From: Promethearchaeota archaeon
GTDB taxonomy: Archaea; Asgardarchaeota; Thorarchaeia; Thorarchaeales; Thorarchaeaceae
Direction: 5' to 3'
NCBI GenBank assembly: GCA_027031765.1
Contig: JALVPN010000077.1
Coordinates: 1-40,190 of the forward strand
Length of the DNA stretch: 40,190 nt
Below the pieces are notes generated by a model, which had not been told where the DNA came from, made no database searches, and saw only the letters and a program-made list of their open reading frames with translations. The translations under genes were made by a program, and so were the position numbers. Of this stretch, positions 12,647-27,950 are shown in pieces (position 1 is the stretch's first letter; every line of letters begins with the position of its first letter).

Positions 12647-13312
12647 GTGATAGCCCTTCGACTGAAGGCACCAGAGAAAATCCTTGAGGCGCTGGAGGGA
12701 CACGAGAAGATAGTGCTCTTTGGGGACTCCGGGTGTGCCCAGCTGTGTGATGTGGGCGGACTGCTCCAGCTCGAGGACATGGAGGACTTCCTGACAAGGA
12801 ACGGGAAGACCGTCCTCGGTGCTGTGTTCGTCGAGGGTGGCATCTGCAATGGCCCTGTCTTCAGGAGTACGGTGCAGGAGCAACGGGCAGTGATAGACAG
12901 CGCCGACGCACTGCTGGTACAGGCCTGTGGTGTCGCAGTACAGACCATTGTAGAACACATCCCGGAGAAGGAGGCCTTCCCTGCGGCTGACTCGATGTTC
13001 CTCGGGGTTTCAAGGGGGCGTGGGACACACTCCGAGCTCTGCGCGATGTGCGGGGACTGCATCCTCCACCTGACCGGCGGGATATGCCCACTGGCCCGCT
13101 GTGCGAAGGGGATACTCAACGGCCCCTGCGGTGGCTCCATGAACGGCAAGTGCGAGAGGGATGAGGACACTGACTGCGCATGGCAGCTCATCTACGACAG
13201 GCTGCGGGCACTGGGAAAGCTCGACAACATCCGGAAGGTGTGGGAGATGAAGGACTGGAGGAGCTCACATGGGCCGCGGGTCATCTCGCACCATGGAGGC
13301 GCAATAGCCTAA
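12647..13312 (+). CDS. metV: MetV-type zinc-binding partner of methylene-tetrahydrofolate reductase
   Basis: The 221-residue protein matches the MTHFR C-terminal (MetV) family, which forms the MetF-MetV reductase complex in acetogens and is Cys-rich. Characteristic segments are FGDSGCAQLCDVGG (about 25-38), then ELCAMCGDCIL, GGICPLARCAKGILNGPCGG and GKCE (about 127-167). These together supply about a dozen cysteines for metal or Fe-S binding. The start is GTG, preceded by AGGAGGT at a spacing of nine bases. It opens a cluster of same-strand genes for methyl transfer, with metF 48 bases downstream. Its presence suggests methylene-pterin reduction by a MetFV-type enzyme, either beside or in place of the F420-dependent archaeal Mer. 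Confidence 0.88.
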   Translation: MIALRLKAPEKILEALEGHEKIVLFGDSGCAQLCDVGGLLQLEDMEDFLTRNGKTVLGAVFVEGGICNGPVFRSTVQEQRAVIDSADALLVQACGVAVQTIVEHIPEKEAFPAADSMFLGVSRGRGTHSELCAMCGDCILHLTGGICPLARCAKGILNGPCGGSMNGKCERDEDTDCAWQLIYDRLRALGKLDNIRKVWEMKDWRSSHGPRVISHHGGAIA

Positions 13313-13360
13313 AGATAATAAGGGGTCTCAGCCGGTCGAGTCCAGAAACACGAGGAGAGG

Positions 13361-14293
13361 ATAACACTCGGTAGCGGAACACGGCTGCAACAGTCACTGG
13401 AAAGAGAAGGCCTGACCATCACCGGGGAAATCGTACCCCCCCGCGGTGCCAGCCCGAAGGCCCTGCTTGAGAAGGCACGGGCGGTCGCTGCGGACTGTGT
13501 CGCCATCAACATCACGGACAACATACGCGGGAACCCAGCAATGAGCAGCATTGCAGCCAGCCACCTGATATGTGACGTGGGTGCCGAACCAATACTCCAA
13601 CTGTCGACACGCGACAGGAACCGCATACTGCTTGAGAGCGAGCTGTATGGCGCCCATGCGCTTGGCATCAGGAACGTCCTCTTTGTGACTGGCGACCACA
13701 CGCTGCTCGGCACCCATCCGCATGCAAAGATGGTCTATGACCTCGACTCGATACAGGCCCTCCAGCTGGCCTCGGAGCTCATGCATGGCAGGGACCTGGC
13801 GGGAAAGGAGCTCGATGGTACACCGTCGTTCTATCTGGGCTCCACCTTCAACCCGTACGCAGACCCCATGGAGCTCCATGCCTGGCGGGTCGAGAAGAAG
13901 CGGGATGCCGGGGCACAGTTCTTCCAGACGCAGGCAGTATACGATGTCGGGCGGTTCAGAGACTTCATGGCACAGATACGGGGCCTCGGAGTGTACGTGC
14001 TCGCCGGGATATACGTCCTGAGAGGGCCGAAGACCGCGAGGTTCATGGACGAGCGCGTGCCGGGGATATACATCCCAGAGGAGATAATTGAACGGCTCGA
14101 GAAGGCTGGGGAGGGCCTGAGTGGCAAGGAGGCCCGGGCCCGCAGACGGGAGGAGGGCATAGCGATAGCCCTTGAGACCACAAGGGAGGTGATGAGGGTG
14201 CCGGGGGTGCACGGTATTGACCTGATGGGGACGGGCTGGGAGCCACACATCACACGCTTCATCGAATCTGCAAGCGGACAGCAGGAGGGATAG
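13361..14293 (+). CDS. metF: Methylene-tetrahydrofolate (or methanopterin) reductase MetF
   Basis: MetF reduces the methylene group on the C1 carrier to methyl with FAD. The conserved N-terminal segment ITGEIVPPRGASPKALLEKA, then AINITDN, lies upstream of the first ATG (13541), so the gene must start earlier. The frame opens after a stop at 13319-13321 and has no in-frame ATG, GTG or TTG before 13541. The best fit to the family N-terminus is ATA at 13361 (reading TLGSGTRLQQSLEREG), directly after GAGGAGAGG. CTG at 13385 is the alternative, or an ATG-to-ATA base error. The coding length is then about 310 residues, normal for MetF. Later motifs (FVTGDHTLLGTHPHAK, GAQFFQTQAVYD, PGIYIPEE) confirm the family. 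Its partner metV lies just upstream and mtrH four bases downstream. Confidence 0.87.
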   Translation: MTLGSGTRLQQSLEREGLTITGEIVPPRGASPKALLEKARAVAADCVAINITDNIRGNPAMSSIAASHLICDVGAEPILQLSTRDRNRILLESELYGAHALGIRNVLFVTGDHTLLGTHPHAKMVYDLDSIQALQLASELMHGRDLAGKELDGTPSFYLGSTFNPYADPMELHAWRVEKKRDAGAQFFQTQAVYDVGRFRDFMAQIRGLGVYVLAGIYVLRGPKTARFMDERVPGIYIPEEIIERLEKAGEGLSGKEARARRREEGIAIALETTREVMRVPGVHGIDLMGTGWEPHITRFIESASGQQEG

Positions 14294-14297
14294 GAGG

Positions 14298-15215
14298 TTG
14301 TTCGTGTTCAAGAAGGAGCAACAGGTAATAGAGATTGGAGGCGTGAGCGTAGGCGGGCAGCCCGGGGAGCACCCCACCGTACTGATAGGTGGCATGTTCT
14401 TCAAGGGCCAGCCCATCGTCAAGAACACAAAGCAGGGGATATTCGACGAGGAGATGGCCCGTGAGTGGGTCGACCTTGCCAACGACATGGTGATCCGCAC
14501 AGGACACCCGCTCATCATACAGGTGTACGGCCGCACCGAGACCGCCATGGAGCGTCACATAGGCTGGCTCGCAGAGAACTTCGACGGGCCCTTCATGTTC
14601 GAGTCGACGAACGCAAAGGCGCGGGTGAGAGGGATTGAGTACTGCAACGAGACCGGCCTCCATGACAGGGCAATCTACAACTCGGTCAACCTGTCGATGA
14701 AGGACGATGAGAAACAGGTCCTGTCCAACAGCCGCATTGACTCCGCAGTTGTCCTTGGCTGGTCGCCACGCGCCACGAGCCTTGAGGAACGGATGGAAAC
14801 AGTAGGGGCAATGATTACGGAGGCCCGTGAGATGGGGCTCCAGCGGCTGCTCGTGGACCCTGCAACTCTGCCCGTGGGCGCAGGGTACGGACTCGAACTG
14901 CGCACTATGATTGCGATAAAGTCACAGCACGGTCTGCCGACCTGTCTGGGCCCCCACAATGCGCCCTCGGCGTGGCAGTTCATCAAGCAGCCCGGCCTTG
15001 ACGACGAGCCGGCACACCTCTCGGCAGTGGTCGCGGCAACGGTGGCGGCTCAGCTGTTCGCCACAGATGCGGTCATGTATGGCTCGATGGCACGGACGAG
15101 GGAGGCCTTCATTGCGGTTGCCCTGATAGGGAATGCACTCGCAGCCACTGCGGCCGAGGCATCCCATGCACTCGGGGTGGACAGGCAGCTCTTTGAACCG
15201 CCCACATCGTTCTGA
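14298..15215 (+). CDS. mtrH: MtrH-like methyl-tetrahydromethanopterin:corrinoid methyltransferase (first copy)
   Basis: MtrH moves the methyl group between the pterin C1 carrier and the cobalt of the corrinoid protein MtrA. The 305-residue protein shows the family start (FVFKKEQQVIEIGGVSVGGQ), FESTNAKARVRGIEY and a TIM-barrel layout related to pterin-binding methyltransferases. The ending LGVDRQLFEPPTSF is also family-like. The start is TTG, with AGGAGGG about eight bases upstream inside the metF end; a GTG two codons later is possible. It is one of two mtrH-like genes flanking mtrA. The two copies differ widely (compare SKNTKQGIFDEEMA with the second copy), so they are paralogs rather than a recent duplication. 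The methyl donor or acceptor could be the cell's methanopterin or a methylated compound. Confidence 0.87.
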   Translation: MFVFKKEQQVIEIGGVSVGGQPGEHPTVLIGGMFFKGQPIVKNTKQGIFDEEMAREWVDLANDMVIRTGHPLIIQVYGRTETAMERHIGWLAENFDGPFMFESTNAKARVRGIEYCNETGLHDRAIYNSVNLSMKDDEKQVLSNSRIDSAVVLGWSPRATSLEERMETVGAMITEAREMGLQRLLVDPATLPVGAGYGLELRTMIAIKSQHGLPTCLGPHNAPSAWQFIKQPGLDDEPAHLSAVVAATVAAQLFATDAVMYGSMARTREAFIAVALIGNALAATAAEASHALGVDRQLFEPPTSF

Positions 15216-15238
15216 TATCTGGCAGGTGGTGGTAGACG

Positions 15239-15931
15239 GTGGGGCAGAGTGCTGACAGGCAGTGGCCGCCGGTGCCAGGCGACTTCATTGTGGGCGACCC
15301 GGGACACCCGGTGGCCATATGCACGCTCGGTAAGAAGATTGATGTTGACTGTGAGTACGCCATAATCGGGACGTGCAAGACCGAGAACATAGGGATAGAG
15401 AGGGTCATTGTGAACATAGTCTCGAACCCAAGGGTCAGGTACCTGATACTCGCAGGCCCAGAGGTGCCGGGTCACAGGACGGGACAGTCCCTCAAGAGCC
15501 TGTATGAGAACGGGGTCGATAGCAAGACCCGGCGGATTGTGGGTGCGGAGGGGGCGATACCGTTCATTGAGAACGTGCCCCTTGAGGCGGTCGAGCGGTT
15601 CCGTCAGCAGGTACAGCTCGTCAACATGCTGAACATCACCGACCCGTCGAGGATTGCGGACACCGCTGCAGAGCTCGCACGCAAAGACCCCGGCGAGTTC
15701 CCGGACGGACCCATGTGGGTGGACTTTGGCACGCACCAGGGTGCCACCCGCGTCCTCACTCCGGGCGGTGCGGTTGCCATTGTCCCGGAGCTCGGTATTG
15801 CGCTCGACCCGTGGACGTCGCTGGTGTCATCACGGGACGCCATGGTGATAGTCTCAGTGCACCCATCAACCGTGGTCGCAGAGTTGCAGGAACAGGACGG
15901 TGGACACGTGATTGTTGTGAGGGAGGTATGA
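15239..15931 (+). CDS. mtrA: Soluble MtrA-like corrinoid protein with a C-terminal DUF4346-like domain
   Basis: The 230-residue protein carries the corrinoid-binding MtrA domain (about 9-135). WPPVPGDFIVGDP, CKTENIGIERVIVNI and GHRTGQSL are near-identical to methanogen MtrA, and His79 in GHRTGQS matches the cobalt-coordinating histidine of that family. Methanogen MtrA ends with a membrane helix. Here that is replaced by about 90 soluble residues (from TDPSRIADTAAEL to VIVVREV) that resemble DUF4346. The protein should therefore be cytoplasmic and independent of the sodium-pumping Mtr complex, whose other subunits are not in the window. The start is GTG. It sits between two mtrH-like genes, 23 bases after the first and 6 before the second. 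Confidence 0.88.
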   Translation: MGQSADRQWPPVPGDFIVGDPGHPVAICTLGKKIDVDCEYAIIGTCKTENIGIERVIVNIVSNPRVRYLILAGPEVPGHRTGQSLKSLYENGVDSKTRRIVGAEGAIPFIENVPLEAVERFRQQVQLVNMLNITDPSRIADTAAELARKDPGEFPDGPMWVDFGTHQGATRVLTPGGAVAIVPELGIALDPWTSLVSSRDAMVIVSVHPSTVVAELQEQDGGHVIVVREV

Positions 15932-15937
15932 CAGACA

Positions 15938-16873
15938 GTGTTCGTGTTCGAACGTGAGCAGCAGATCTTTGACATCGGTGGTGTCACGGTCGGTGGCACT
16001 CCGGGAGAGAACCCGACCGTCCTTGCCGGGACGATATTCTACTCCGGTGACAAGACCGTCCGCGACGCCCGTACGGGCGAGTTCGATGCGGCGGAGGCGG
16101 AGAGGCTGGTCACGACACAGGACGAGCTGTCAGACATGACGGGCAACCCGGCCCTCGTCCAGGTGTTTGCACAGTCGCCGCGTGCTGTGGAGAGGTACAT
16201 CGACTTTGTGAGCGAGGTCACTGATGCGCCGTTCCTGATAGACTCCACAGACCCTGAGACACGGGTCGCGGGGCTCCGTCATGCGGAGGAGGTGGGGCTG
16301 CTCGACAGGGCGGTGTACAACTCCGTCAACATCTCAATGACCGAGGACGAACGGATGGCCCTCTCCGAGATGGGACAGCTGTGTGCGATAGTCCTTGCTT
16401 TCAACCCCCATGACGCGACGATTGCAGGGCGCAGGGCCGTCCTCGAGTCAGGGACGCCGGAGATGGGAGAGGGGCTGCTTGAGACCTGTGAGAAGGTGGG
16501 CATCAACAGGCCACTCATAGACACAGCAATGACCTCCCTCGGGGCCGGGGCGGGGCCCGCCGTGGCATTCACCCTCGTTGCAAAGAGCCTCTATGGCTAT
16601 CCCACCGGGTGCGGTATACACAATGCCGTGTCGTCGTGGCCATGGCTGCTGGGACTGAAGCGACACGACAAAGAGGCATACCGCACCTGTGATGTCGCGT
16701 CCAACGTCATCGTACAGCTGATGGGCGGTGACTTTGTCCTCTACGGGCCCATAAAGAATGCCAGGCTCGTGTTCCCTGTGGCTGCAATGGCAGACGCGCT
16801 CGCGGCCGAGTGCGTGAGCATGGAGCTCGGTGTCAGTCCGGCCGATGGGCACCCGTTCAGGCGGCTGGTATAG
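15938..16873 (+). CDS. mtrH: MtrH-like methyltransferase (second copy)
   Basis: The 311-residue protein has the same start and fold as the first copy: FVFEREQQIFDIGGVTVGG, IDSTDPETRVAGLRHAEEVG, YNSVNISMTEDE and GCGIHNAVSSW. It shares the same conserved framework but differs throughout. One copy may serve the pterin side and the other a methylated substrate. Alternatively the two may form a heterodimer around MtrA, but nothing in the sequence decides this. GTG at 15938 follows the mtrA stop by 6 bases, with GGGAGG about 12 bases upstream. The marker-14 gene begins 15 bases after its stop. Confidence 0.87.
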   Translation: MFVFEREQQIFDIGGVTVGGTPGENPTVLAGTIFYSGDKTVRDARTGEFDAAEAERLVTTQDELSDMTGNPALVQVFAQSPRAVERYIDFVSEVTDAPFLIDSTDPETRVAGLRHAEEVGLLDRAVYNSVNISMTEDERMALSEMGQLCAIVLAFNPHDATIAGRRAVLESGTPEMGEGLLETCEKVGINRPLIDTAMTSLGAGAGPAVAFTLVAKSLYGYPTGCGIHNAVSSWPWLLGLKRHDKEAYRTCDVASNVIVQLMGGDFVLYGPIKNARLVFPVAAMADALAAECVSMELGVSPADGHPFRRLV

Positions 16874-16888
16874 GACGGGTGTAGCAGT

Positions 16889-18298
16889 ATGCCCACAAGG
16901 CCCACATTTGTGCGCCCGCCACGCATGGGCACGCTGTCACTCAGGAAGGGGCCGTTCTATACGGTGGCCTCTGTAGAACTCGGTAATACCACCACCAAGT
17001 GTGTGGTAGTGACGACCGACCTCAGGACAGCGCGCATGTACATGCTGGGAAAGCTCGTGCGTCTGACGCGTGAGGCAAGACCACCGCGGGAGGGGGAGCT
17101 GGTCTTTGGGAGGACGCTCACTGGCACACCGCTCACACGGGAGTCCGTGGCAGAGCTGGTCGCCGAGACCCTCACGGGAGCTGTAAGGCAGGTGAGGCTG
17201 GACATTGAGCGCGACCTCCACTTCGTCGTCCGGTCCACGGGCGTGACCGCAGGGTTCGCCACACCGTCAGAGGTCGGCGAGATGGTCAGGGCCCTTGCCC
17301 AGGGCTGTCTGCAGGCCGGGATCCCGCCACGGAAGATGACAGCATCAATCTCACTCGACAGGGTCCCACCAGGGCTCCGGCGCTACAGCCTCCTTGACAG
17401 GGTCTACTTTGATGGGGCGGTGGCCGGGACGCGTCCCCCGGCGGCAACGGAAATCGTAGCAAATGAAATGGAGGGGGAGCTGGTCACTGCCGGACTGAAG
17501 GGTGCCGCAAAGAACACGCAGGTCGACTTCAGGAACCCTGTCATGACCCTGGACTTCGGCACCACACTGGCCGGACGCGTGACTGACGAGTCGTACCCCT
17601 ATGCAGATACCATTGGCTCGTTTGCGGGGCTTGGTGGGGCGATACCGGACGCCCTCGTCCGTGGTGCAGGCCTTGCAGACCCGGTCACTGGTTGCGTCCT
17701 TGATGTCGAGGCCCCGAAACGGTACAGCGTGGAGGTGGGCGAGTGGCTCGAAAAAGTGCACTCGCTTGTGGATGTGCGGACAGTCCCAGCTGGTACCACC
17801 AGGTTCGGCACGGTGCCCGTAGACACCAGGGCAGCGGACGAGTCAGGGGTCGTGCTGATAGGCGTCGACGCTGGGAGGAACGGGTCTGCCCTGTCGGAGC
17901 TGGAGAGACTGGGCGCGGAGGTCTACGAGGCGGGCGGACTGGGACTGCTGATGGGCCTTGTCGACCGGGTGCAGGTACAGACAGTGCAGAGGCTCGTGAG
18001 CACCGCGGAGGAGGAGGGCATCGTGCTCCCCCGGACGGCACTTGGCCTGACAGGAAGGGGGATTACGACTGGCACGAAGCCGCGACTGGTCACAAAGTAC
18101 CTGACCACTGCGAGCGGCGAGCCCTGGACAGAGTCGCATGTCCTGCTCATGGTAGAGGACGGGCTTGCCCTCGGAGCTGCGGTAGCGGCCCGCTGCATGA
18201 ACTCCATGGGGACTCCCAAGCACCCGATAGGTGGCCGTCAGGGTGACGGGTGCGTGCTGGCCGCGCGGCGCGAGGCACAGAAGGGCCGTACTGGATGA
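16889..18298 (+). CDS. Methanogenesis marker protein 14 (DUF2114), ASKHA-type ATPase
   Basis: The 469-residue protein matches methanogenesis marker 14. It starts YTVASVELGNTTTK (about 24-37), then shows DLHFVVRSTGVTAGFATP, GIPPRKMTAS, IVANEMEGELVTAGLKG, and TLDFGTTLAG (220-229). The ELGNTTTK and LDFGTTLAG segments are phosphate-binding loops of the acetate kinase/Hsp70/actin fold. The family is distantly related to the ATPase part of corrinoid reactivators of the RACo type, but this protein lacks their N-terminal 2Fe-2S ferredoxin domain. It follows mtrH-mtrA-mtrH in what looks like one operon. This makes ATP-driven reactivation of MtrA-bound cobalamin a plausible but untested role. The start is the only ATG among the plus-strand genes of the cluster. 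Confidence 0.88.
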   Translation: MPTRPTFVRPPRMGTLSLRKGPFYTVASVELGNTTTKCVVVTTDLRTARMYMLGKLVRLTREARPPREGELVFGRTLTGTPLTRESVAELVAETLTGAVRQVRLDIERDLHFVVRSTGVTAGFATPSEVGEMVRALAQGCLQAGIPPRKMTASISLDRVPPGLRRYSLLDRVYFDGAVAGTRPPAATEIVANEMEGELVTAGLKGAAKNTQVDFRNPVMTLDFGTTLAGRVTDESYPYADTIGSFAGLGGAIPDALVRGAGLADPVTGCVLDVEAPKRYSVEVGEWLEKVHSLVDVRTVPAGTTRFGTVPVDTRAADESGVVLIGVDAGRNGSALSELERLGAEVYEAGGLGLLMGLVDRVQVQTVQRLVSTAEEEGIVLPRTALGLTGRGITTGTKPRLVTKYLTTASGEPWTESHVLLMVEDGLALGAAVAARCMNSMGTPKHPIGGRQGDGCVLAARREAQKGRTG

Positions 18299-18364: not shown

Positions 18365-19138
18365 GTGCTTGTCATCCCCATCAGGACCAGGGTCATCAGA
18401 CCCGACGACAACATAGTGGATGTGATACTCGACGGCCTTGCCAGGGCTTGCCACGAGCTCCGTGAAGGGGACATCCTAGGGATTGCTGAAACACCACTGG
18501 GGACGACGGAGGGGCGGGTGATTCGCCTGTCAGACGTAGTTGTGAGTGACAGGGCACGAGACCTTGCACAACGCTACGACATGGTACCGGAGGTCGCGCA
18601 GCTCGTACTGGACGAGGCCGACGAGGTCCTCGGAGGTATCCCACACGTGCTCCTCACAATCAAGAACAACACACTGATGGCCAATGCCGGGGTCGACAAG
18701 TCGAATGTGCCACCGGGCTACGCATCACTGTTGCCCGAAGACCCGGCAGCCAGTGCAGCACGGATACGGGAGGAGGTGGCCAGGCGCCTCGGCATAGGAG
18801 TGGGCGTAATCGTGATAGACAGCCGTACGCAGCCGCTGCGGCTAGGCAACGTAGGGATGGCCCTTGCTGTGGCGGGGTTCCGGCCCGTGGTCGACGAGCG
18901 TGGCAGGACAGACCTCTTCGGGAACGTCCTGCGCGTGACGCGACGTGCTGTTGCTGACAACCTGGCCTCTGCGTGCACTGCGGTGATGGGTGAGGCCGAC
19001 GAGGCAGTCCCAGCGGCACTGATAAGGGATGCGCCCGTCGAGTACACGGACACTGTCCACGACTCGTCAGAGATGTGGATTTCACCCGAGGAGTGCATGT
19101 ACATGGCAATCTTTGAGCAGTGGAGACGCGGGATGTGA
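18365..19138 (+). CDS. cofE: Coenzyme F420:L-glutamate ligase
   Basis: CofE adds gamma-linked glutamates to F420-0 with GTP, finishing the deazaflavin cofactor of archaeal hydride transfer. The 257-residue protein shows the family order: VIPIRTRVIRPDDNIVDVI at the start, GDILGIAETPLGTTEGR, the loop VDKSNVPPGYASLLPEDP, DSRTQPLRLGNVGMALAVAG, and RTDLFGN. The start is GTG after GGAGGT at a spacing of nine bases. It is 66 bases after the marker-14 gene and on the same strand, so it may share the operon. The position links the C1 cluster to a cell that uses F420. Confidence 0.92.
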   Translation: MLVIPIRTRVIRPDDNIVDVILDGLARACHELREGDILGIAETPLGTTEGRVIRLSDVVVSDRARDLAQRYDMVPEVAQLVLDEADEVLGGIPHVLLTIKNNTLMANAGVDKSNVPPGYASLLPEDPAASAARIREEVARRLGIGVGVIVIDSRTQPLRLGNVGMALAVAGFRPVVDERGRTDLFGNVLRVTRRAVADNLASACTAVMGEADEAVPAALIRDAPVEYTDTVHDSSEMWISPEECMYMAIFEQWRRGM

Positions 19139-19142
19139 CTTC

Positions 19143-19204
19143 GAAAGAAAGAGAGAGAGAGAAAGAGAGAAAGAGAGAAAGAAAGAAAGAAAGAAAGAAA
19201 AGGG
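19143..19204 (+). repeat. 62-base uninterrupted purine tract
   Basis: Mixed GA and GAAA repeats run from 19143 to 19204 with no pyrimidine on the plus strand, starting four bases after the cofE stop. The transcript of the plus-strand operon would read purines only, so this is not a T-tract terminator for that direction. On the complementary strand it is all pyrimidine. Confidence 0.9.
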
Positions 19205-19253
19205 CGATTCATTAGGCTAGGCAAGCGGACCGTATGACGGGAGACTGAGAACA

Positions 19254-20594
19254 GTGGGAAGACCAATAGTCCTCTTTGATGTCGCGTCGGCAGGTGCATC
19301 CGGGGACATGTTCCTGTCAGCACTGATAGACCTGATTGGGGACGACGAGGCCATACTCCGAGTCGCAGCAAGCATGCTGATCTACGACCCGACGCTACGG
19401 GTAAACGTCACACCTGTCACAGTGGGGGACACTGAGGGCAAGAGGCTCGATATCACCCTAGACACAGGGGTCAGGTTCGAGCCGCAAGCAATGCATGAGG
19501 TGCTCAAAGAGGTCGCAACCGAGCTTGAGCTCTCAGAACACGGCCTCGAGACCGCAGAGCGGATGCTGGACATACTGTTCACCGCCGAGAGCAAGGCACA
19601 TGACACGCCGGTGGATGAGCTGCACCTCCACGAGGTCGGCTCCATAGACACGGTTCTTGACGTCGTTGGGGTAGTGTACCTCCTTGAGAAGGCTGGTCTC
19701 CTCGGTGCAAAGTTCATCTCCACTCATGTGGCAATTGGCCAGGGCAGCATCGAGACCGAACACGGCGCGTTCGAGGTGCCAGTGCCAGCCGTTGCGGAAA
19801 TCCTTGTTGCACATGACATCCCATTCCACAGGAGCACAGCCCAGACCGAGACCCTGACCCCGACAGGGGCCGCTATACTGGCGGCGCTTGCGGAGGACTA
19901 CGTCGACTCGACTGAGGGCATCGAGTTGGAACGTTCCGGGGTGGGTTTCGGAACTCGCGACCTGGGCGAAACGCCGAACGCGATGCACATACACATCTGT
20001 CGCGGGACGGCACCAGCACGAGAGGCCGCCGAGATGACACGGGAAGCAGAGGCGGAAGGAGCAAAAGAGGCCGCGGCACCAGTTGAGGCCCCAGAGGCCG
20101 ACCGGAGGCTTGAGACGTTGACGGGTTGGGACACTGACGAAGTGGTAGTCCTCGAAACGAACGTTGACGATGTCGATGGCGAGACCATGGGTACGCTCTT
20201 CGACGCACTGCTGGACACACATGGTGTGTTTGATGTGGTGGCAATCCCGGCATATGGGAAGAAGAACCGTCCGTGCCTGGTCGTAAAGGTGATTGCTTCG
20301 GCTCGGGCCCTCGCGGAGGTCCCCGACATCCTAGTGAAACACCTGGGGACAATTGGGGTGCGGTATACCACGTGGCGCCGCGTGAAAGCGACCCGCGAAA
20401 CCGTCGTCTGCAGGATTGATGTGGAGGGCAAGGAGTACATGGTGCGGGTGAAGGTCTCACGGAGTGCGGACGGCAGTGTGGTGAATGTCAAGCCAGAGGC
20501 CGATGATGTGAGAAAGGTCGCACGTGAGACCGGCATCCCGACGCGGTTCCTGCGGCCAATGATCATACTACAGGCGAAGGCGGTCACCGAGTAG
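19254..20594 (+). CDS. larC: LarC-like nickel-pincer cofactor insertion protein
   Basis: LarC inserts nickel into the pyridinium dithiocarboxylate mononucleotide cofactor of lactate racemase, using CTP. The 446-residue protein shows the family start FDVASAGASGDMFLSALIDLIGD. It also has DELHLHEVGSIDTVLDVVG, the metal-rich segment GQGSIETEHGAFEVPVPA, PTGAAILAAL, and in the second half VVLETNVDDVDGETMG. A Glu/Ala-rich linker (about 245-282) separates the two domains. The gene is intact, whereas some bacterial larC genes need a frameshift. LarB, LarE and a recognisable racemase are not in the window, so the client enzyme is unknown. The start is GTG. It follows cofE across the purine tract and is the last plus-strand gene of the cluster. 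Confidence 0.88.
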   Translation: MGRPIVLFDVASAGASGDMFLSALIDLIGDDEAILRVAASMLIYDPTLRVNVTPVTVGDTEGKRLDITLDTGVRFEPQAMHEVLKEVATELELSEHGLETAERMLDILFTAESKAHDTPVDELHLHEVGSIDTVLDVVGVVYLLEKAGLLGAKFISTHVAIGQGSIETEHGAFEVPVPAVAEILVAHDIPFHRSTAQTETLTPTGAAILAALAEDYVDSTEGIELERSGVGFGTRDLGETPNAMHIHICRGTAPAREAAEMTREAEAEGAKEAAAPVEAPEADRRLETLTGWDTDEVVVLETNVDDVDGETMGTLFDALLDTHGVFDVVAIPAYGKKNRPCLVVKVIASARALAEVPDILVKHLGTIGVRYTTWRRVKATRETVVCRIDVEGKEYMVRVKVSRSADGSVVNVKPEADDVRKVARETGIPTRFLRPMIILQAKAVTE

Positions 20595-23397: not shown

Positions 23398-23468
23398 ACG
23401 GCCATATGTTACAGGCACACAGTCCCACTCATACGAATACGAGTCTGGCCGTCCAAAGATTCAGTGGG

Positions 23469-24044
23469 GTGCTCAAAATAGTAACTGCGCTGTTCAAAGT
23501 AATCCTCATGGGTGATGGCTCCGTCGGAAAGACAAGCCTGCGACGGGTGTACATGGGCGAGGGGTTCAAGGCATCGTACATGATCACAATAGGGGCCGAC
23601 TTTGCCGTCAAGAAGATGACCCTAGAAGGAGGCCACGATGTCAGCATTCAGATCTGGGACCTGGCAGGCCAAGAACACTTCAAGAGCGTCCGCTCCACGT
23701 TCTACCGTGGTGCCCAGGGTGCACTCGCAGTGTACTCCACAGTGGAACGGAGCTCCTTCGAGAACATTGAGAACTGGGTGGAAGAGTGCTGGAGCAACGC
23801 AGGCAAGAAGATTCCAGTCGTGTTGATTGGGAACAAGATTGACCTCCGGGAACAGTTCATAGACAACCCCGTAATGCGCCAGACCATTGTCACTACTGAG
23901 GAGGGACAGGCCCTAGCCGACAGAATTGCCCAGCGGGGCGTCCACGCGTCCTTCATAGAGACCTCTGCCAAGACCGGGAAGAACGTCGAGGCTGCATTCC
24001 TCGAACTGATAATCAGGATCTTGGAGGCCGGCGGGCTCTCATAG
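23469..24044 (+). CDS. Ras/Rab-like small GTPase
   Basis: The protein has about 191 residues from the GTG at 23469, where small-GTPase homology starts (LKIVTALFKVILMGDGSVGKTSL). All G motifs are present: G1 GDGSVGKTS, G2 Thr in TIGADF, G3 WDLAGQE with the catalytic Gln, G4 NKID, G5 ETSAKTG. The TIGADF-plus-WDLAGQE pattern is closest to Rab/Ran-type Ras-superfamily proteins, not to bacterial MglA. The C-terminus (ILEAGGLS) lacks prenylation cysteines, as is general in archaea, so membrane attachment would need a partner. It lies convergent to a HEAT-plus-ear protein, and a WD40 protein, a second GTPase and a Roadblock protein follow within 4 kb. Confidence 0.93.
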   Translation: MLKIVTALFKVILMGDGSVGKTSLRRVYMGEGFKASYMITIGADFAVKKMTLEGGHDVSIQIWDLAGQEHFKSVRSTFYRGAQGALAVYSTVERSSFENIENWVEECWSNAGKKIPVVLIGNKIDLREQFIDNPVMRQTIVTTEEGQALADRIAQRGVHASFIETSAKTGKNVEAAFLELIIRILEAGGLS

Positions 24045-24150
24045 GCACCTTGACAGCTGATCATTACATTGCCCTGCCCATGGCAAGATGTTGGGCACTG
24101 GGCCAGCCGACCAGATGAGGCAATCAGGGTGCTCGGTCAACCGCGGCAGG

Positions 24151-25365
24151 TCAGGCGGTCATGAGCACGCACGCGGATATGCGCTGGTAGAACTCACTTG
24201 CAGCGGTCTGGAGCACTTCAGGGGCGTCAGACATCGTGTGTATTTGCAGCTGACACTTCTTCGAGACCAGGTCACCGACCATCAGGACATGGAGGACGAC
24301 CTTCAGTCCCGTATAGCTACCTGTGCCAGCGGCCTTCAGGGATGCCATCAAGACACTGCTTTCACGACGGGTCTTGCAGTCGAAGGTGTGGAGGTTGCAC
24401 CTGTCGAGCATGTCCCTGATGGCCTCGAACATCGTCACGGGGTCTACAGGCACCTCGTGCTCACGACTCCACCCCTTCATGGCCCGCAGGAGAGTGGCCT
24501 CTTCAGATGGCGAGATGTTGAGTGGTTCCAGCCGCTCGAAAAATGTCCGGACGGTGCAGTTCCCCGCAGGTGCAGACGCCCGCTGGCCGTCGACATCTGT
24601 GAACACCACCAGCGGGACAATCTCTCCCTCTATGCACTCGCGTGTCGCTGACATCTCAAACGTGACAGACCGTGCCTCTCCAGGTCCAATACGTGGGACT
24701 GTCCGCACAGTGCCATCGACCGGTCTCAGGCTGTCGGCCGGGTAGGCGAGCAGGCGTACGTCCACGTCAGTGATTGGGCCCTGCGTGTCATTCGACACCC
24801 GGATCCTGAAGGTGACAGTCCCATCATTGACTGAGAGCTCGTTTGAGACTGAAACATCCATCCTCGTCCGGATGGGCACGGGGTCTAAGGACATGGGCGC
24901 GGCAGGCTGGGAAACTGCTGTGGAAACGACCACCTGTGGGCGCTGACTCCCGGGTGTCCCCTGAGTGTGAGAATGGAGCACGGCCCACTCGTGTGCATAC
25001 TCAGCTGCCTGCACTACCATCTCCAGAGGGTCGTCTTGGGCCAAGGCGAGGGTGTCCGACACCCCACTGGGGTCGATGGTGGTGAGGAAGACAAGGGCTG
25101 CTGCGCGTACCTCTCCGGTGTCGTCATGACAGGCAATCTCAAGGCCCCCAATGGCCTCGGGCCCAAACTCAGCAAGCCGACATACAGCAAGGAGCCGGGT
25201 CTCAGGCTCGCCCGCGAGAGATGCGTCCTTGCATGCCTGTAGAGACCTCAAGCCCGACAGCATACGCGAGAGAGGGGGGTCAGACTCCTCAAGAAAGAGG
25301 GCCCGTCGTAGGCGTGAGAGGATGCCGCCAGAGTCATCAGGTGTGTTCTCCATGCCCGGACTCAT
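24151..25365 (-). CDS. HEAT-like solenoid protein with an adaptin-appendage-like C-terminal region
   Basis: The 404-residue protein has three parts. Residues about 15-135 are short paired helices that look like HEAT repeats (RLLAVCRLAEFGPEAIGGLE, VRAAALVFLTTIDP, MVVQAAEYAHEW). A Pro/Ser/Gln linker (about 136-170) follows. Residues about 171-280 are a beta-sandwich (VTFRIRVSNDTQGPITDVDVRL). Residues about 285-404 form a mixed alpha/beta domain (VTMFEAIRDML, then four strands ending QLQIHTMSD). Solenoid, hinge, Ig-like sandwich and platform is the order found in the ear region of coatomer gamma and AP adaptins, and the pattern here resembles the gamma-COP appendage. This rests on reading the sequence by eye; remote-homology or structure comparison is needed. 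It starts at ATG 25365, about 10 bases after the predicted transcription start. Confidence 0.75.
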   Translation of the reverse strand: MSPGMENTPDDSGGILSRLRRALFLEESDPPLSRMLSGLRSLQACKDASLAGEPETRLLAVCRLAEFGPEAIGGLEIACHDDTGEVRAAALVFLTTIDPSGVSDTLALAQDDPLEMVVQAAEYAHEWAVLHSHTQGTPGSQRPQVVVSTAVSQPAAPMSLDPVPIRTRMDVSVSNELSVNDGTVTFRIRVSNDTQGPITDVDVRLLAYPADSLRPVDGTVRTVPRIGPGEARSVTFEMSATRECIEGEIVPLVVFTDVDGQRASAPAGNCTVRTFFERLEPLNISPSEEATLLRAMKGWSREHEVPVDPVTMFEAIRDMLDRCNLHTFDCKTRRESSVLMASLKAAGTGSYTGLKVVLHVLMVGDLVSKKCQLQIHTMSDAPEVLQTAASEFYQRISACVLMTA

Positions 25366-25398
25366 ATGCCCACTTCATACTGGGCCCACTTCTGAGGC

Positions 25399-25407
25399 GA
25401 TATAAGG
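25399..25407 (-). promoter_or_regulatory. TATA-like box for the HEAT/ear protein
   Basis: The minus strand reads CTTATATC, which predicts transcription start near 25376 and a leader of about 10 bases before the ATG at 25365. Confidence 0.5.
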
Positions 25408-25550
25408 TTATGGCACAACACAGCGGTGCAGTGGCACCACACTGTTTTGTCGGCCGGGGGACTGAGGACGTAGAGGGCGCTGTGGAGCAGCAGCAGTACA
25501 AACAACATGAGAGTTGACACCCGGACTGACGACAGTGTTGCAACTAGCAA

Positions 25551-25558
25551 CTTTTTAG
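25551..25558 (+). promoter_or_regulatory. TATA-like box for the WD40 gene
   Basis: CTTTTTAG predicts transcription start near 25581, followed by a leader that contains a run of ten C (25585-25594) and a five-codon open frame (25598-25615) overlapping the main start. Confidence 0.45.
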
Positions 25559-25611
25559 GGGAATACCGTCATAGCGAGCTACGACCCCCCCCCCACCATG
25601 AGGCGCATCAT

Positions 25612-26742
25612 ATGAGCGAGCACGAACTCACACTGTTCTTGAGACCAGAGACCATCAAGCCGCCTGCCGAGCACGGCTCCGAGCTCACACGGAGGATTGC
25701 ACTGAACCATGCAGGCCGATTGATTGCTGTGGGAATGCAGGACAAGAGCATCCGGCTATACGATGCAACCAACTTCGAGGAGATCCAGAAGCTCCAGGAC
25801 AACTTCCTGAGCACGGCTCTGGCATTCAGTCCACGAGGGGACACTGTGGCATCTGGTGGTGTCGACAGGGTGGTAAAGATATGGGACATAAGGACGGGCG
25901 AGGTGCTCACGACACTGGAAGGGCACACATACCCGATTCTCGGGCTCTCGTTCTCACCTGACGGTAGCAGGCTCCTCTCAGCCAGCGGAGACACGACGCT
26001 CATAGTCTGGGATCTCAACAGTGGCACCGAGTCCAGCAGGCTCAGGGGCCACAAGTTATACGTCATGTCCTGCGACTGGCATCCAGAGGACGACCTCGTC
26101 GTGTCGGGGGCTGTCGACGCCACCATTGCACTGTGGGACCCGAACACTGGCAAGATGTTGGGCCAGTACGGCGAACACAGGACCGCGGTCCATGTGGTCA
26201 GGTTCTCCCCACAGGGTGACAGGCTCCTGTCCACATCATCGGACATGACGTGCAAGGTCTGGGACGTGGGCGGGGAGAGCGTCAGGCCCGTGCACACCCT
26301 TCAGGGGCACACAGCAGAGGTGAGGACGGCCACATGGAGCAGTGACGGAGAGCTCATCGCCTCAGGGTCCAGTGAGAAGGAGCTCTTCCTCTGGTCACTG
26401 GACTCACTGCAGGTGGAGGGGGAGGCACGTACAGCTGGGGAGATTGACGGGATAGAGTGGTTCCCTAGCAAGAAGGAGTTCGTCACAGCCGACAGTTCGG
26501 GGGCAATTACCCGCTGGCGCGTACAGGAGCTGTCCATTGTCCTGGCGCCATTCCGCGACCTGCTGGCAGAAATCCAGGCAGACAGCACAGGGGCGCACCG
26601 TGAGGAGCACATCCGCCAGTTTGACGACCTCGTGCAGCGCTACGGTGAGGAGACCCTGAAGGACAAGAGGGTGTTCTATCTGATGTGGCAGTGCAAGCGT
26701 GCACTGGGGCTCCTCAAGGGCAGACCAGCCGGTACACGGTGA
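25612..26742 (+). CDS. WD40 beta-propeller protein
   Basis: The protein has 376 residues from the ATG at 25612; the frame continues to 25507 but lies upstream of the transcription start. It has seven WD40 repeats (about residues 25-325), each ending in a pattern such as VKIWDI, LIVWDL, IALWDP, CKVWDV, LFLWSL or ITRWRV, with GH dipeptides such as LEGHTYPIL and LRGHKLYV. A helical C-terminal tail of about 55 residues (from LAPFRDLLAEIQ) is added, as in some coat and scaffold propellers. It probably provides a protein-binding platform. It stands between two genes for Ras-like GTPases and next to a HEAT/ear gene. It is convergent with the second GTPase gene, 16 bases away. Confidence 0.92.
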   Translation: MSEHELTLFLRPETIKPPAEHGSELTRRIALNHAGRLIAVGMQDKSIRLYDATNFEEIQKLQDNFLSTALAFSPRGDTVASGGVDRVVKIWDIRTGEVLTTLEGHTYPILGLSFSPDGSRLLSASGDTTLIVWDLNSGTESSRLRGHKLYVMSCDWHPEDDLVVSGAVDATIALWDPNTGKMLGQYGEHRTAVHVVRFSPQGDRLLSTSSDMTCKVWDVGGESVRPVHTLQGHTAEVRTATWSSDGELIASGSSEKELFLWSLDSLQVEGEARTAGEIDGIEWFPSKKEFVTADSSGAITRWRVQELSIVLAPFRDLLAEIQADSTGAHREEHIRQFDDLVQRYGEETLKDKRVFYLMWQCKRALGLLKGRPAGTR

Positions 26743-26758
26743 CCCCGTAACCCCCGGT

Positions 26759-27286
26759 TCACTGCTTCGTCGCGTCAATCATTAGTCGACAGAGCATGGC
26801 GAATGCCTCTTCTACATTCTCTCCTGTCAACGCACTCGACTCAACATAGAGAAAACCATTGGCCTCCGCATACTCCTTGCCCTCGTCGGTTGCGACCACC
26901 CTGCTGTCGGTAAGGTCCACCTTGTTTGCTACGACCACCATCGGTACTTCCCGCCCGATATTGCTGAAACCCTCCTCTTTCCACCGGTCGAGGTTCAGGA
27001 AGGTGCGTCGCCGGGTCACATCAAAGACCAAGAGGCCCCCACGAGCACCCCTATAGAACCCCTGCCTGACGACTTCGAAACGGGGCTGTCCTGCAAGATC
27101 CCAGACTTGGAGCACGACGTTTGCGTCACGGTCGAGCAGTGACACCCTCTTGATTGCAAAGTCGGAGCCAATGGTACGTTTGTAGTCGGCCTCAAAAAAG
27201 TCCTGTGTGAACCGCAGGGTCAGTGCTGTCTTCCCGACCGCGCCGTCCCCAAGCATGACGACCTTGAACCGGTACTCAGCGGGCAT
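26759..27286 (-). CDS. Second Ras/Rab-like small GTPase
   Basis: The protein is about 175 residues from the ATG at 27286; an ATG at 27295 is nearly as likely. G motifs: G1 GDGAVGKTA, G2 Thr in RTIGSDF, G3 WDLAGQP (with the catalytic Gln, Pro where Glu is usual), G4 NKVD, G5 ESSAL. The effector-side segment FYRGARGGLLVFDVTRR is Rab/Ras-like. The C-terminus (RLMIDATKQ) has no cysteine for lipidation. It is not a close copy of the first GTPase, so the pair is not a recent duplication. It is divergent from the Roadblock gene, with about 280 bases between starts, and convergent with the WD40 gene. Confidence 0.93.
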   Translation of the reverse strand: MPAEYRFKVVMLGDGAVGKTALTLRFTQDFFEADYKRTIGSDFAIKRVSLLDRDANVVLQVWDLAGQPRFEVVRQGFYRGARGGLLVFDVTRRRTFLNLDRWKEEGFSNIGREVPMVVVANKVDLTDSRVVATDEGKEYAEANGFLYVESSALTGENVEEAFAMLCRLMIDATKQ

Positions 27287-27311
27287 GTGACACACATCCT
27301 CGGTGGCTCAC

Positions 27312-27325
27312 GGGTCGCGAGACCC
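27312..27325. promoter_or_regulatory. GNRA-type hairpin beside the GTPase promoter
   Basis: GGGTC and GACCC pair across the loop GCGA, giving a five-base-pair stem. The TATA-like box of the second GTPase follows immediately (27325-27331). It may be an operator or only a chance palindrome. Confidence 0.35.
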
Positions 27326-27331
27326 TATAAT
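27325..27331 (-). promoter_or_regulatory. TATA-like box for the second Ras-like GTPase
   Basis: The minus strand reads TTATAG within ATTATAG. The spacing predicts transcription start close to 27301, making the ATG codons at 27295 or 27286 nearly leaderless. Confidence 0.45.
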
Positions 27332-27516
27332 CGTGACGCAGTCCAATGGCAGGACGCAAGTCGCTAGCGCAGGCCTCCCTTTTGAAGATTGCCTATTGCA
27401 ACAAAGAGATGCGTGTTGCCTCCGACCAGTAGCGGCAGCACGCACTACTGACGGTGGCGGCACGTACATGCGCACTGGTCGTTGTTGCGCAGCATGTGGG
27501 TCATTGAGGCCAGTAT

Positions 27517-27525
27517 TGTTTAATA
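27517..27525 (+). promoter_or_regulatory. TATA-like box for the Roadblock gene
   Basis: TGTTTAATA predicts transcription start near 27548, and the GGGGTGA ribosome-binding site (27557-27563) then lies about 10 bases before the ATG at 27570. Confidence 0.5.
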
Positions 27526-27569
27526 GCAGATTGGAAGAGCAAGGTACTGCTGGCATGGGGTGAAACAGG

Positions 27570-27950
27570 ATGAAGCGACCGGACTACGTGTTACTCGCTG
27601 AGATACTTACCGAGATGAACATGGAGGGTGGCTACACGGCATCTATTCTTGCCAGGGCAGATGGTCTGCTCGTGGCCTCTGCAAAGACCCCATCTGTGGA
27701 CCAGGACATTGTGGCCGCCATGGCCGGGTATGTGTCTGCGACCGTGGAGAGGATGCGGGACGAACTCGCACTCGGGAATGTGCATGACATCACCGTGAGG
27801 TGTTCAGAGGGCAAGGCGGTGTTCAAGAAGGTGCCGGTGACGGGGGAGGACCTGATCCTTGCAGCACTGATGCCAAGGGGGATACGATATCACGCGAGAC
27901 TCCTCGGCAAGACCGCGACAAAGATAGCGAGGATGTTCGGTAAGCAGTAG
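27570..27950 (+). CDS. Roadblock/LC7-domain protein
   Basis: The 126-residue protein reads as one Roadblock/LC7 domain: an amphipathic helix (LAEILTEMNME), a strand with SILARADGLLVASAK, a long helix (DIVAAMAGYVSATVERMRDEL), two strands (VHDITVRCSEGKAVFKKV) and a last helix. Domains of this kind dimerise and bind Ras-like GTPases, acting as GAP, GEF scaffold or membrane platform (MglB, Ragulator, dynein light chain). It lies opposite the promoter of a Ras-like GTPase gene and is therefore a likely partner. The start has a good ribosome-binding site (GGGGTGA). A basic C-terminal tail (LGKTATKIARMFGKQ) may be an added interaction surface. Confidence 0.88.
   Translation: MKRPDYVLLAEILTEMNMEGGYTASILARADGLLVASAKTPSVDQDIVAAMAGYVSATVERMRDELALGNVHDITVRCSEGKAVFKKVPVTGEDLILAALMPRGIRYHARLLGKTATKIARMFGKQ

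What the first reader, a model, noticed from the sequence alone, without database searches (positions are those of the whole stretch)
12647..18298. Minimal soluble methyl-transfer pathway: metV-metF-mtrH-mtrA-mtrH-marker 14
The genes form a same-strand run with short gaps. MetFV would make a methyl-pterin, two diverged MtrH-like proteins bracket a soluble MtrA, and no membrane Mtr subunits are present. This suggests sodium-independent methyl transfer to corrinoid, either in a Wood-Ljungdahl-type route or in using methylated substrates. MetFV, typical of acetogens, combined with archaeal MtrA/MtrH and F420 synthesis is unusual.
Basis: partly seen in the sequence, partly recalled or inferred. 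Interest (0 to 1): 0.75.

Follow-up and report, generated by a model that had tools for sequence, protein, structure and literature searches.

The report
Soluble two-MtrH methyl-transfer operon in Thorarchaeota
A conserved gene cluster of Thorarchaeota (Asgard archaea that do not make methane) builds a soluble vitamin-B12 methyl carrier flanked by two different methyltransferases, which most likely moves methyl groups between the cell's two one-carbon carriers, folate and methanopterin.

Summary
In detail: metV, metF, mtrH1, mtrA, mtrH2 and marker 14 lie in order on one strand, followed by cofE and larC. The host is a Thorarchaeota MAG (95% complete), and the core mtrH1-mtrA-mtrH2-marker 14 is conserved across its family. 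Thorarchaeial MtrAH without membrane Mtr, and a marker tied to Mtr, are already published.

MtrE is absent and MtrA lost its membrane anchor, but Mer is present on another contig. The genome lacks acetyl-CoA synthase, MttB and other B12-binding methyl-carrier proteins, so neither a Wood-Ljungdahl route to acetyl-CoA nor classical methylotrophy fits it. MetVF beside archaeal Mtr is not unusual.

New here: the two MtrH belong to different clades. MtrH2 is canonical; MtrH1 is a Thor/Sif-specific paralogue with an Asp-to-Glu change at a catalytic position. The genome holds both a folate arm (FTHFS, FolD, FtcD/FchA) and Mer.

Best reading (0.4): a corrinoid bridge between the methyl-folate and methyl-methanopterin pools, with marker 14 as an ASKHA-type reactivase. 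No tested genome of the family has a known methionine synthase, so an unknown MtrA-fed one is the main novel alternative.

The parts
12647..13312 (+). MetV, partner subunit of methylene-pterin reductase
   Evidence: PF12225 E 4e-35; next to metF in some relatives, 2.3-4.7 kb away or not seen in others
13361..14293 (+). MetF, methylene-THF-type reductase; frame open from 13322, no ATG/GTG/TTG at the expected start (ATA at 13361)
   Evidence: PF02219 E 4e-28, frame, homologous starts in relatives
14298..15215 (+). MtrH1, divergent Thor/Sif-specific MtrH paralogue; Glu102 in place of catalytic Asp, Ser156 in place of Asn
   Evidence: PF02007 E 3e-74; alignment and tree
15239..15931 (+). MtrA, soluble corrinoid protein with the invariant His79; about 65-residue C-terminal extension (residues 165-230, DNA about 15731-15928) in place of the membrane anchor
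   Evidence: PF04208 E 2e-56; PDB 5laa/8q3v matches; no TM segment; model
15938..16873 (+). MtrH2, canonical H4MPT-type MtrH
   Evidence: TIGR01114 376 bits, above cut-off; clade and active-site residues
16889..18298 (+). Methanogenesis marker 14 (DUF2114), ASKHA-fold ATPase-like protein, candidate MtrA reactivase
   Evidence: TIGR03285 589 bits; model pLDDT 91 and Foldseek matches incl. RACo 3zyy; co-occurs with canonical MtrA
18365..19138 (+). CofE-like F420-0:gamma-glutamyl ligase, conserved neighbour
   Evidence: TIGR01916 196 bits, above cut-off 181; synteny in relatives and Sifarchaeum
19254..20594 (+). LarC-like nickel insertion protein, conserved neighbour
   Evidence: TIGR00299/NF052512 above cut-off; synteny

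Best explanation
The core mtrH1-mtrA-mtrH2-marker 14 is a soluble corrinoid methyl shuttle joining two pterin pools. MetVF interconverts methylene- and methyl-folate. MtrH1 exchanges the methyl group between methyl-folate and the Co(I) corrinoid of MtrA. MtrH2 exchanges it between MtrA and methanopterin. On the methanopterin side the methyl group then meets Mer in this genome, or acetyl-CoA synthase in relatives that lack Mer. Marker 14 would use ATP to bring oxidised Co(II)-MtrA back into the cycle. No membrane Mtr takes part, so no sodium gradient is made or used. Shown: gene identities, order, conservation, paralogue clades, presence of both arms, absence of the other acceptors tested, predicted ASKHA fold of marker 14. 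Inferred: pterin specificity of MtrH1 and MetVF, the methyl flow and its direction, and the reactivase role.
For: One MtrA with two MtrH of different clades: the MtrH1 branch has 100/100 support, and MtrH2 sits among Mtr-complex MtrH. MtrH1 keeps the pterin-site residues N128, D187 and N221, but has invariant E102 for D102 and S156 for N156. Position 156 is Asn in every canonical MtrH sampled and not Asn in THF-linked relatives (MtgA Ser, CmuB Asp). The MtgA entries in the PDB include changes at the D102 and N229 equivalents, marking these as active-site positions. The own genome has a folate cluster FTHFS-FolD-FtcD/FchA and Mer; FolD is in 17 of 19 family members. MetF sits directly before MtrH1, as a MetF-type gene sits before cmuB on pCMU01. 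In Methanosarcinales, metV-metF is part of a folate cluster. The module persists whether the genome has Mer (11 of 19) or CdhC (5 of 19); no genome has both (p 0.005, not corrected for relatedness), as expected if it feeds a shared methyl-H4MPT pool. Acceptor families tested and absent from the own genome.
Against: MtrH1 does not group with MtgA/CmuB in the tree, and its Glu102 is unlike both THF- and H4MPT-type enzymes, so folate specificity rests on position and one residue. MetF of ANME-1 type, the clade in which Asgard MetF are reported, has been proposed to act on H4MPT (PMC9012536); MetVF would then be redundant with Mer here. The single-contig chromosome in L037 has no metF in the cluster. 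Other H4MPT enzymes (Mtd, Mch, Ftr, Fwd) were not searched in this genome. The gain from exchanging methyl groups between two pterins is unclear without knowing the direction of flow.
Confidence: 0.4

Rival explanations
1. Methyl supply for a thiol acceptor: methyl-pterin goes through MtrH2 to MtrA, and from there to homocysteine (an unrecognised methionine synthase) or coenzyme M, either through MtrH1 or through an unlinked enzyme.
For: No MetE/Mes family PF01717 (0 of 25 family members) and no MetH/BHMT family PF02574 (0 of 19). Four relatives (G008, G012, G015, G017) encode HcyBio for homocysteine, yet have neither; G012 and G015 also lack B12-binding_2 proteins. MetF normally serves methionine synthesis, and MtrA is the predicted donor for MesA in methanogens (PMC7857596).
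Against: The own genome and 20 other family members lack HcyBio, so many may need external methionine. MtrH1 has no fully conserved Cys and keeps the pterin-site residues, so a zinc-thiolate site of the usual kind is unlikely. Mes itself is absent. CoM synthesis and CoM methyltransferases were not tested.
Confidence: 0.2
2. Methylotrophic funnel (published view): MtrAH brings methyl groups from methylated compounds into the methanopterin or Wood-Ljungdahl pathway.
For: Proposed for Asgard and other MtrAH (PMC9635834, PMC11291895, PMC9723677). Several relatives have MttB and B12-binding_2 proteins.
Against: The own genome and G004, G012, G015 have neither MttB nor B12-binding_2 proteins, and no CdhC, yet keep the module.
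Confidence: 0.15
3. MtrH1 and MtrH2 form one heterodimer acting on one pterin, with MtrH1 as a structural or docking partner that takes the place of the membrane subunits.
For: MtrH-family enzymes are dimers (own knowledge). The two genes occur one to one in almost all loci, and MtrH1 has an altered catalytic residue.
Against: MtrH1 keeps the remaining pterin-site residues invariant, which a purely structural partner would not need.
Confidence: 0.15
4. MetVF replaces Mer on methanopterin and the cluster is the methyl branch of an archaeal Wood-Ljungdahl pathway.
For: Five relatives with CdhC lack a Mer above cut-off; MetF is proposed to replace Mer in ANME-1 (PMC9012536).
Against: In the own genome Mer is present and CdhC absent; CdhDE-type corrinoid proteins, not MtrA, normally take the methyl group to ACS (own knowledge).
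Confidence: 0.1

Closest known systems
Mtr, Na+-translocating methyl-H4MPT:CoM methyltransferase (MtrA-H) of methanogens
   Same: MtrH2 is a canonical MtrH; MtrA has the corrinoid domain and His ligand; marker 14 is next to mtrH in Methanobrevibacter, Methanosphaera, Nezhaarchaeota and Hecatellales
   Different: No MtrE in 39 genomes; MtrA has no membrane anchor; a second, divergent MtrH; Mcr not reported for these archaea (not searched here)
Soluble MtrAH of Thorarchaeia and Sifarchaeia (PMC9635834, PMC9723677)
   Same: This is the same module in a further genome
   Different: The published passages read here do not describe the second MtrH as a separate clade, the MetVF link, or its independence of ACS
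CmuB and MtgA, THF-dependent MtrH homologues of bacteria
   Same: Same fold family; cmuB lies next to a MetF-type gene; Ser at position 156 shared by MtgA and MtrH1
   Different: They work with other corrinoid proteins and do not group with MtrH1
MtrAH fusion proteins of other Asgard archaea (Atabeyarchaeia, Freyarchaeia and others)
   Same: MtrA plus MtrH without membrane subunits
   Different: One fused chain, distant clade, no marker 14 in the four genomes that have only the fusion
RACo/RamA corrinoid reactivases
   Same: ASKHA fold; RACo 3zyy among the Foldseek matches of marker 14, E 2e-6; Halomicrococcus has corrinoid protein, RACo-type protein and MtrH in one cluster
   Different: Marker 14 has no RACo Pfam domain and no iron-sulfur domain; closest fold matches are TsaD/Qri7-like

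Membership tests
Mtr complex (MtrA-H) | MtrA corrinoid domain with cobalt-ligating His | tested here: met
   PF04208; His79 invariant in 14 sequences
Mtr complex (MtrA-H) | MtrH pterin methyltransferase | tested here: met
   MtrH2 376 bits vs cut-off 271
Mtr complex (MtrA-H) | Membrane subunits (MtrE tested as marker) | tested here: not met
   0 of 39 genomes, controls positive; MtrC and MtrD not tested
Mtr complex (MtrA-H) | C-terminal membrane helix of MtrA | tested here: not met
   Maximum 19-residue hydropathy 1.38 vs 1.9-2.5 in four archaeal MtrA
MetFV methylene-THF reductase | MetF barrel and MetV C-terminal domain, adjacent genes | tested here: met
   PF02219 and PF12225
MetFV methylene-THF reductase | Acts on folate | not testable with these tools
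   Indirect only: folate genes in genome and folate context in Methanosarcinales
THF-type MtrH (MtgA/CmuB) for MtrH1 | Groups with MtgA/CmuB | tested here: not met
   Separate clade, support 100/100
THF-type MtrH (MtgA/CmuB) for MtrH1 | Active-site Asp (MtgA mutant position) kept | tested here: not met
   Glu in 26 of 26; other pterin-site residues kept; CmuB itself aligns Asn there
Wood-Ljungdahl route to acetyl-CoA | CdhC/ACS in the genome | tested here: not met
   Absent in own genome, present in 5 of 19 family members
MttB-type methylotrophy | MttB and a B12-binding_2 corrinoid protein in the genome | tested here: not met
   Both absent in own genome
MesA methionine synthesis from MtrA | PF01717 core methionine synthase | tested here: not met
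   0 of 25 family members
RACo/RamA reactivase for marker 14 | ASKHA fold with ATP phosphate loops | tested here: met
   Model pLDDT 91; RACo among matches; GNTTxK and DxGT-like motifs conserved
RACo/RamA reactivase for marker 14 | RACo C-terminal family (PF14574) and iron-sulfur domain | tested here: not met
   Only PF09887 matched; only two invariant Cys

The most novel reading that the evidence does not exclude
The cluster is, or feeds, a new kind of methionine synthase: a split B12-dependent system in which methyl-MtrA, charged by MtrH, methylates homocysteine in archaea that have none of the tested methionine synthase families (MetE/Mes, MetH/BHMT).
Probability: 0.12. Interest if true: 0.8.

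Novelty: new variant of a known kind. Interest (0 to 1): 0.5.

Why it matters
What MtrA and MtrH do outside methanogenesis is an acknowledged open question (PMC9635834). Here a whole Asgard family keeps a soluble version in a fixed operon, independent of acetyl-CoA synthase and of methylated-substrate enzymes. If it links folate and methanopterin, it explains how one cell can run both carriers. The operon also points to marker 14, a protein of unknown function in methanogens, as the likely ATP-driven reactivator of MtrA. Both ideas can be tested with four purified proteins.

Tried and rejected
MtrA as methyl donor for a MesA-type methionine synthase: rejected as such, no PF01717 in the family. 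Hdr/Mvh genes linked to MetVF, as in Moorella: the genes between metV and metF in L020 and L033, and before metF in L039, look like ABC-type solute-binding proteins by reading (not scanned). MtrH1 as a zinc-thiol methyltransferase: no fully conserved Cys. Marker 14 by sequence against the PDB: nothing significant; only the fold comparison helped. MtrA C-terminal extension: model confidence too low (45-65) to name a fold. First related-loci scan with a single sequence found nothing. MetV against the PDB: no match. No paper naming DUF2114 was found.

Full report
What is there. The window is contig C77 of a 2.95 Mb genome, 95% complete. Related loci in a public genome collection are almost all Thorarchaeota, so the host is a member of that Asgard family. 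Six genes follow one another on the + strand: metV, metF, mtrH1, mtrA, mtrH2 and marker 14, then cofE and larC. From metF to marker 14 the gaps are 4, 23, 6 and 15 bp. The genome holds no other PF02007 or PF04208 match.

Conservation. PF04208 was found in 23 of 25 family members and PF09887 (marker 14) in almost all. In the named Thorarchaeota loci metF precedes mtrH1 in 22 of 23 cases, and mtrH1-mtrA-mtrH2-marker 14-cofE-larC keeps its order. The exception is the single-contig chromosome in L037, which has no metF there. metV is less stable: adjacent in some, kilobases away in others, not seen in the rest. Sifarchaeum has mtrH1-mtrA-mtrH2 and, on another contig, the end of an mtrH2 followed by cofE and marker 14. 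The core unit is therefore mtrH1-mtrA-mtrH2-marker 14.

MtrA is soluble. It matches the corrinoid domain of solved MtrA and keeps the histidine. Its hydropathy maximum is 1.38, against 1.9 to 2.5 in archaeal MtrA with a C-terminal anchor. The anchor is replaced by a conserved extension of about 65 residues whose model is of low confidence. MtrE is absent in all 39 genomes searched.

Two kinds of MtrH. A maximum-likelihood tree of 52 sequences puts MtrH2 among MtrH of Mtr complexes and MtrH1 of Thor and Sif in a separate clade, 100/100. MtrH1 keeps N128, D187 and N221 but has Glu for Asp at 102 in 26 of 26 and Ser for Asn at 156 in 25 of 26. The PDB holds MtgA variants changed at the 102 and 229 equivalents, so these are active-site positions. 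Canonical MtrH have Asn at 156; MtgA has Ser and CmuB Asp. This suggests a changed substrate in MtrH1, possibly folate, but does not prove it.

What else the genome has. Mer is present and scores above two curated cut-offs. A folate cluster FTHFS-FolD-FtcD/FchA is present. Absent are CdhC, MttB, B12-binding_2 corrinoid proteins, PF01717, PF02574 and HcyBio. Absence is limited by 95% completeness and by the sensitivity of the search. Across 19 family members, none has both Mer above cut-off and CdhC (11 Mer, 5 CdhC, 3 neither; p 0.005 without correction for relatedness). The 2019 description of a Thorarchaeota genome with methanopterin enzymes but no cdh agrees (PMC6737245), and that paper also notes folate and methanopterin versions side by side.

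Reading. The published idea is that MtrAH funnels methyl groups into the Wood-Ljungdahl pathway (PMC9635834). In this genome the pathway has no ACS and no enzyme of the MttB kind, so the module must do something else or something more general. Two MtrH of different type around one carrier, MetF beside the divergent one, and both pterin systems in the same genome fit a corrinoid bridge between folate and methanopterin. A MetF-type gene beside cmuB on pCMU01 and metV-metF within purN-glyA-folD-folP clusters downstream of mtr in Methanosarcinales (PMC9012536) are precedents. Against it, Asgard MetF are reported in the ANME-1-type clade, for which methanopterin has been proposed. The flow direction is unknown.

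Marker 14. Its model (pLDDT 91) is an ASKHA-type ATPase fold; RACo, the reactivator of the corrinoid iron-sulfur protein, is among the matches though not the closest. Both phosphate-loop motifs are conserved, and there is no iron-sulfur domain. Among the Asgard genomes searched it occurs only where canonical MtrA occurs, not where only fused MtrAH is found, and it sits beside mtrH in several methanogens and in Hecatellales. Adam et al. call one marker, m26, tied to Mtr (PMC9635834); whether m26 is marker 14 could not be checked. Corrinoid proteins need reactivation, so an ATP-dependent MtrA reactivase is the most likely role; this is inference.

The missing methionine synthase. None of the tested families of methionine synthase was found in the family, yet four relatives encode HcyBio with aspartate-semialdehyde dehydrogenase and aspartokinase nearby. 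Either these archaea take up methionine or an unknown enzyme exists. MtrA would be an obvious donor. This is the most novel reading left open.

Verdict. A real, conserved module of a known kind with a new feature, the paired divergent MtrH, in a setting that excludes the usual explanations for this genome. Part of the finding is already in the literature.

Noticed in passing
window 13322-13541: MetF has no ATG, GTG or TTG where its homologues start; the frame opens at 13322 and an ATA at 13361 follows a GA-rich stretch. Non-standard start or sequence error.
   Followed up: partly
window 15731-15928: Conserved C-terminal extension of MtrA (consensus LLPExGVSLDPxTSLV) without a Pfam match or a confident model.
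   Followed up: partly
L156, L157, L158, L159: HcyBio, an UPF0280-like gene (NCBIfam PRK04334, hypothetical), aspartate-semialdehyde dehydrogenase and aspartokinase form one cluster in four relatives that have no known methionine synthase.
   Followed up: partly
G000-G018: Mer and CdhC are mutually exclusive in the 19 Thorarchaeota family genomes searched.
   Followed up: partly
window 19139-19215: Purine-rich GA/GAAA simple repeat between cofE and larC.
   Followed up: no
window 18365-19138: CofE homologue is syntenic with MtrH and marker 14 in Thor and Sif; it passes one F420 cut-off but not another, so a pterin glutamate ligase role is conceivable.
   Followed up: no
window 23406-27950: Small GTPases (a Rab-like ORF at 23406 and a Ras-family ORF at 26759), a WD40 protein and a Roadblock/LC7 protein, typical Asgard eukaryote-like genes.
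   Followed up: no
L163 4215-8921: Halomicrococcus plasmid cluster: corrinoid protein, RACo-type protein, DUF1638 and an MtrH homologue, a parallel arrangement in a haloarchaeon.
   Followed up: partly
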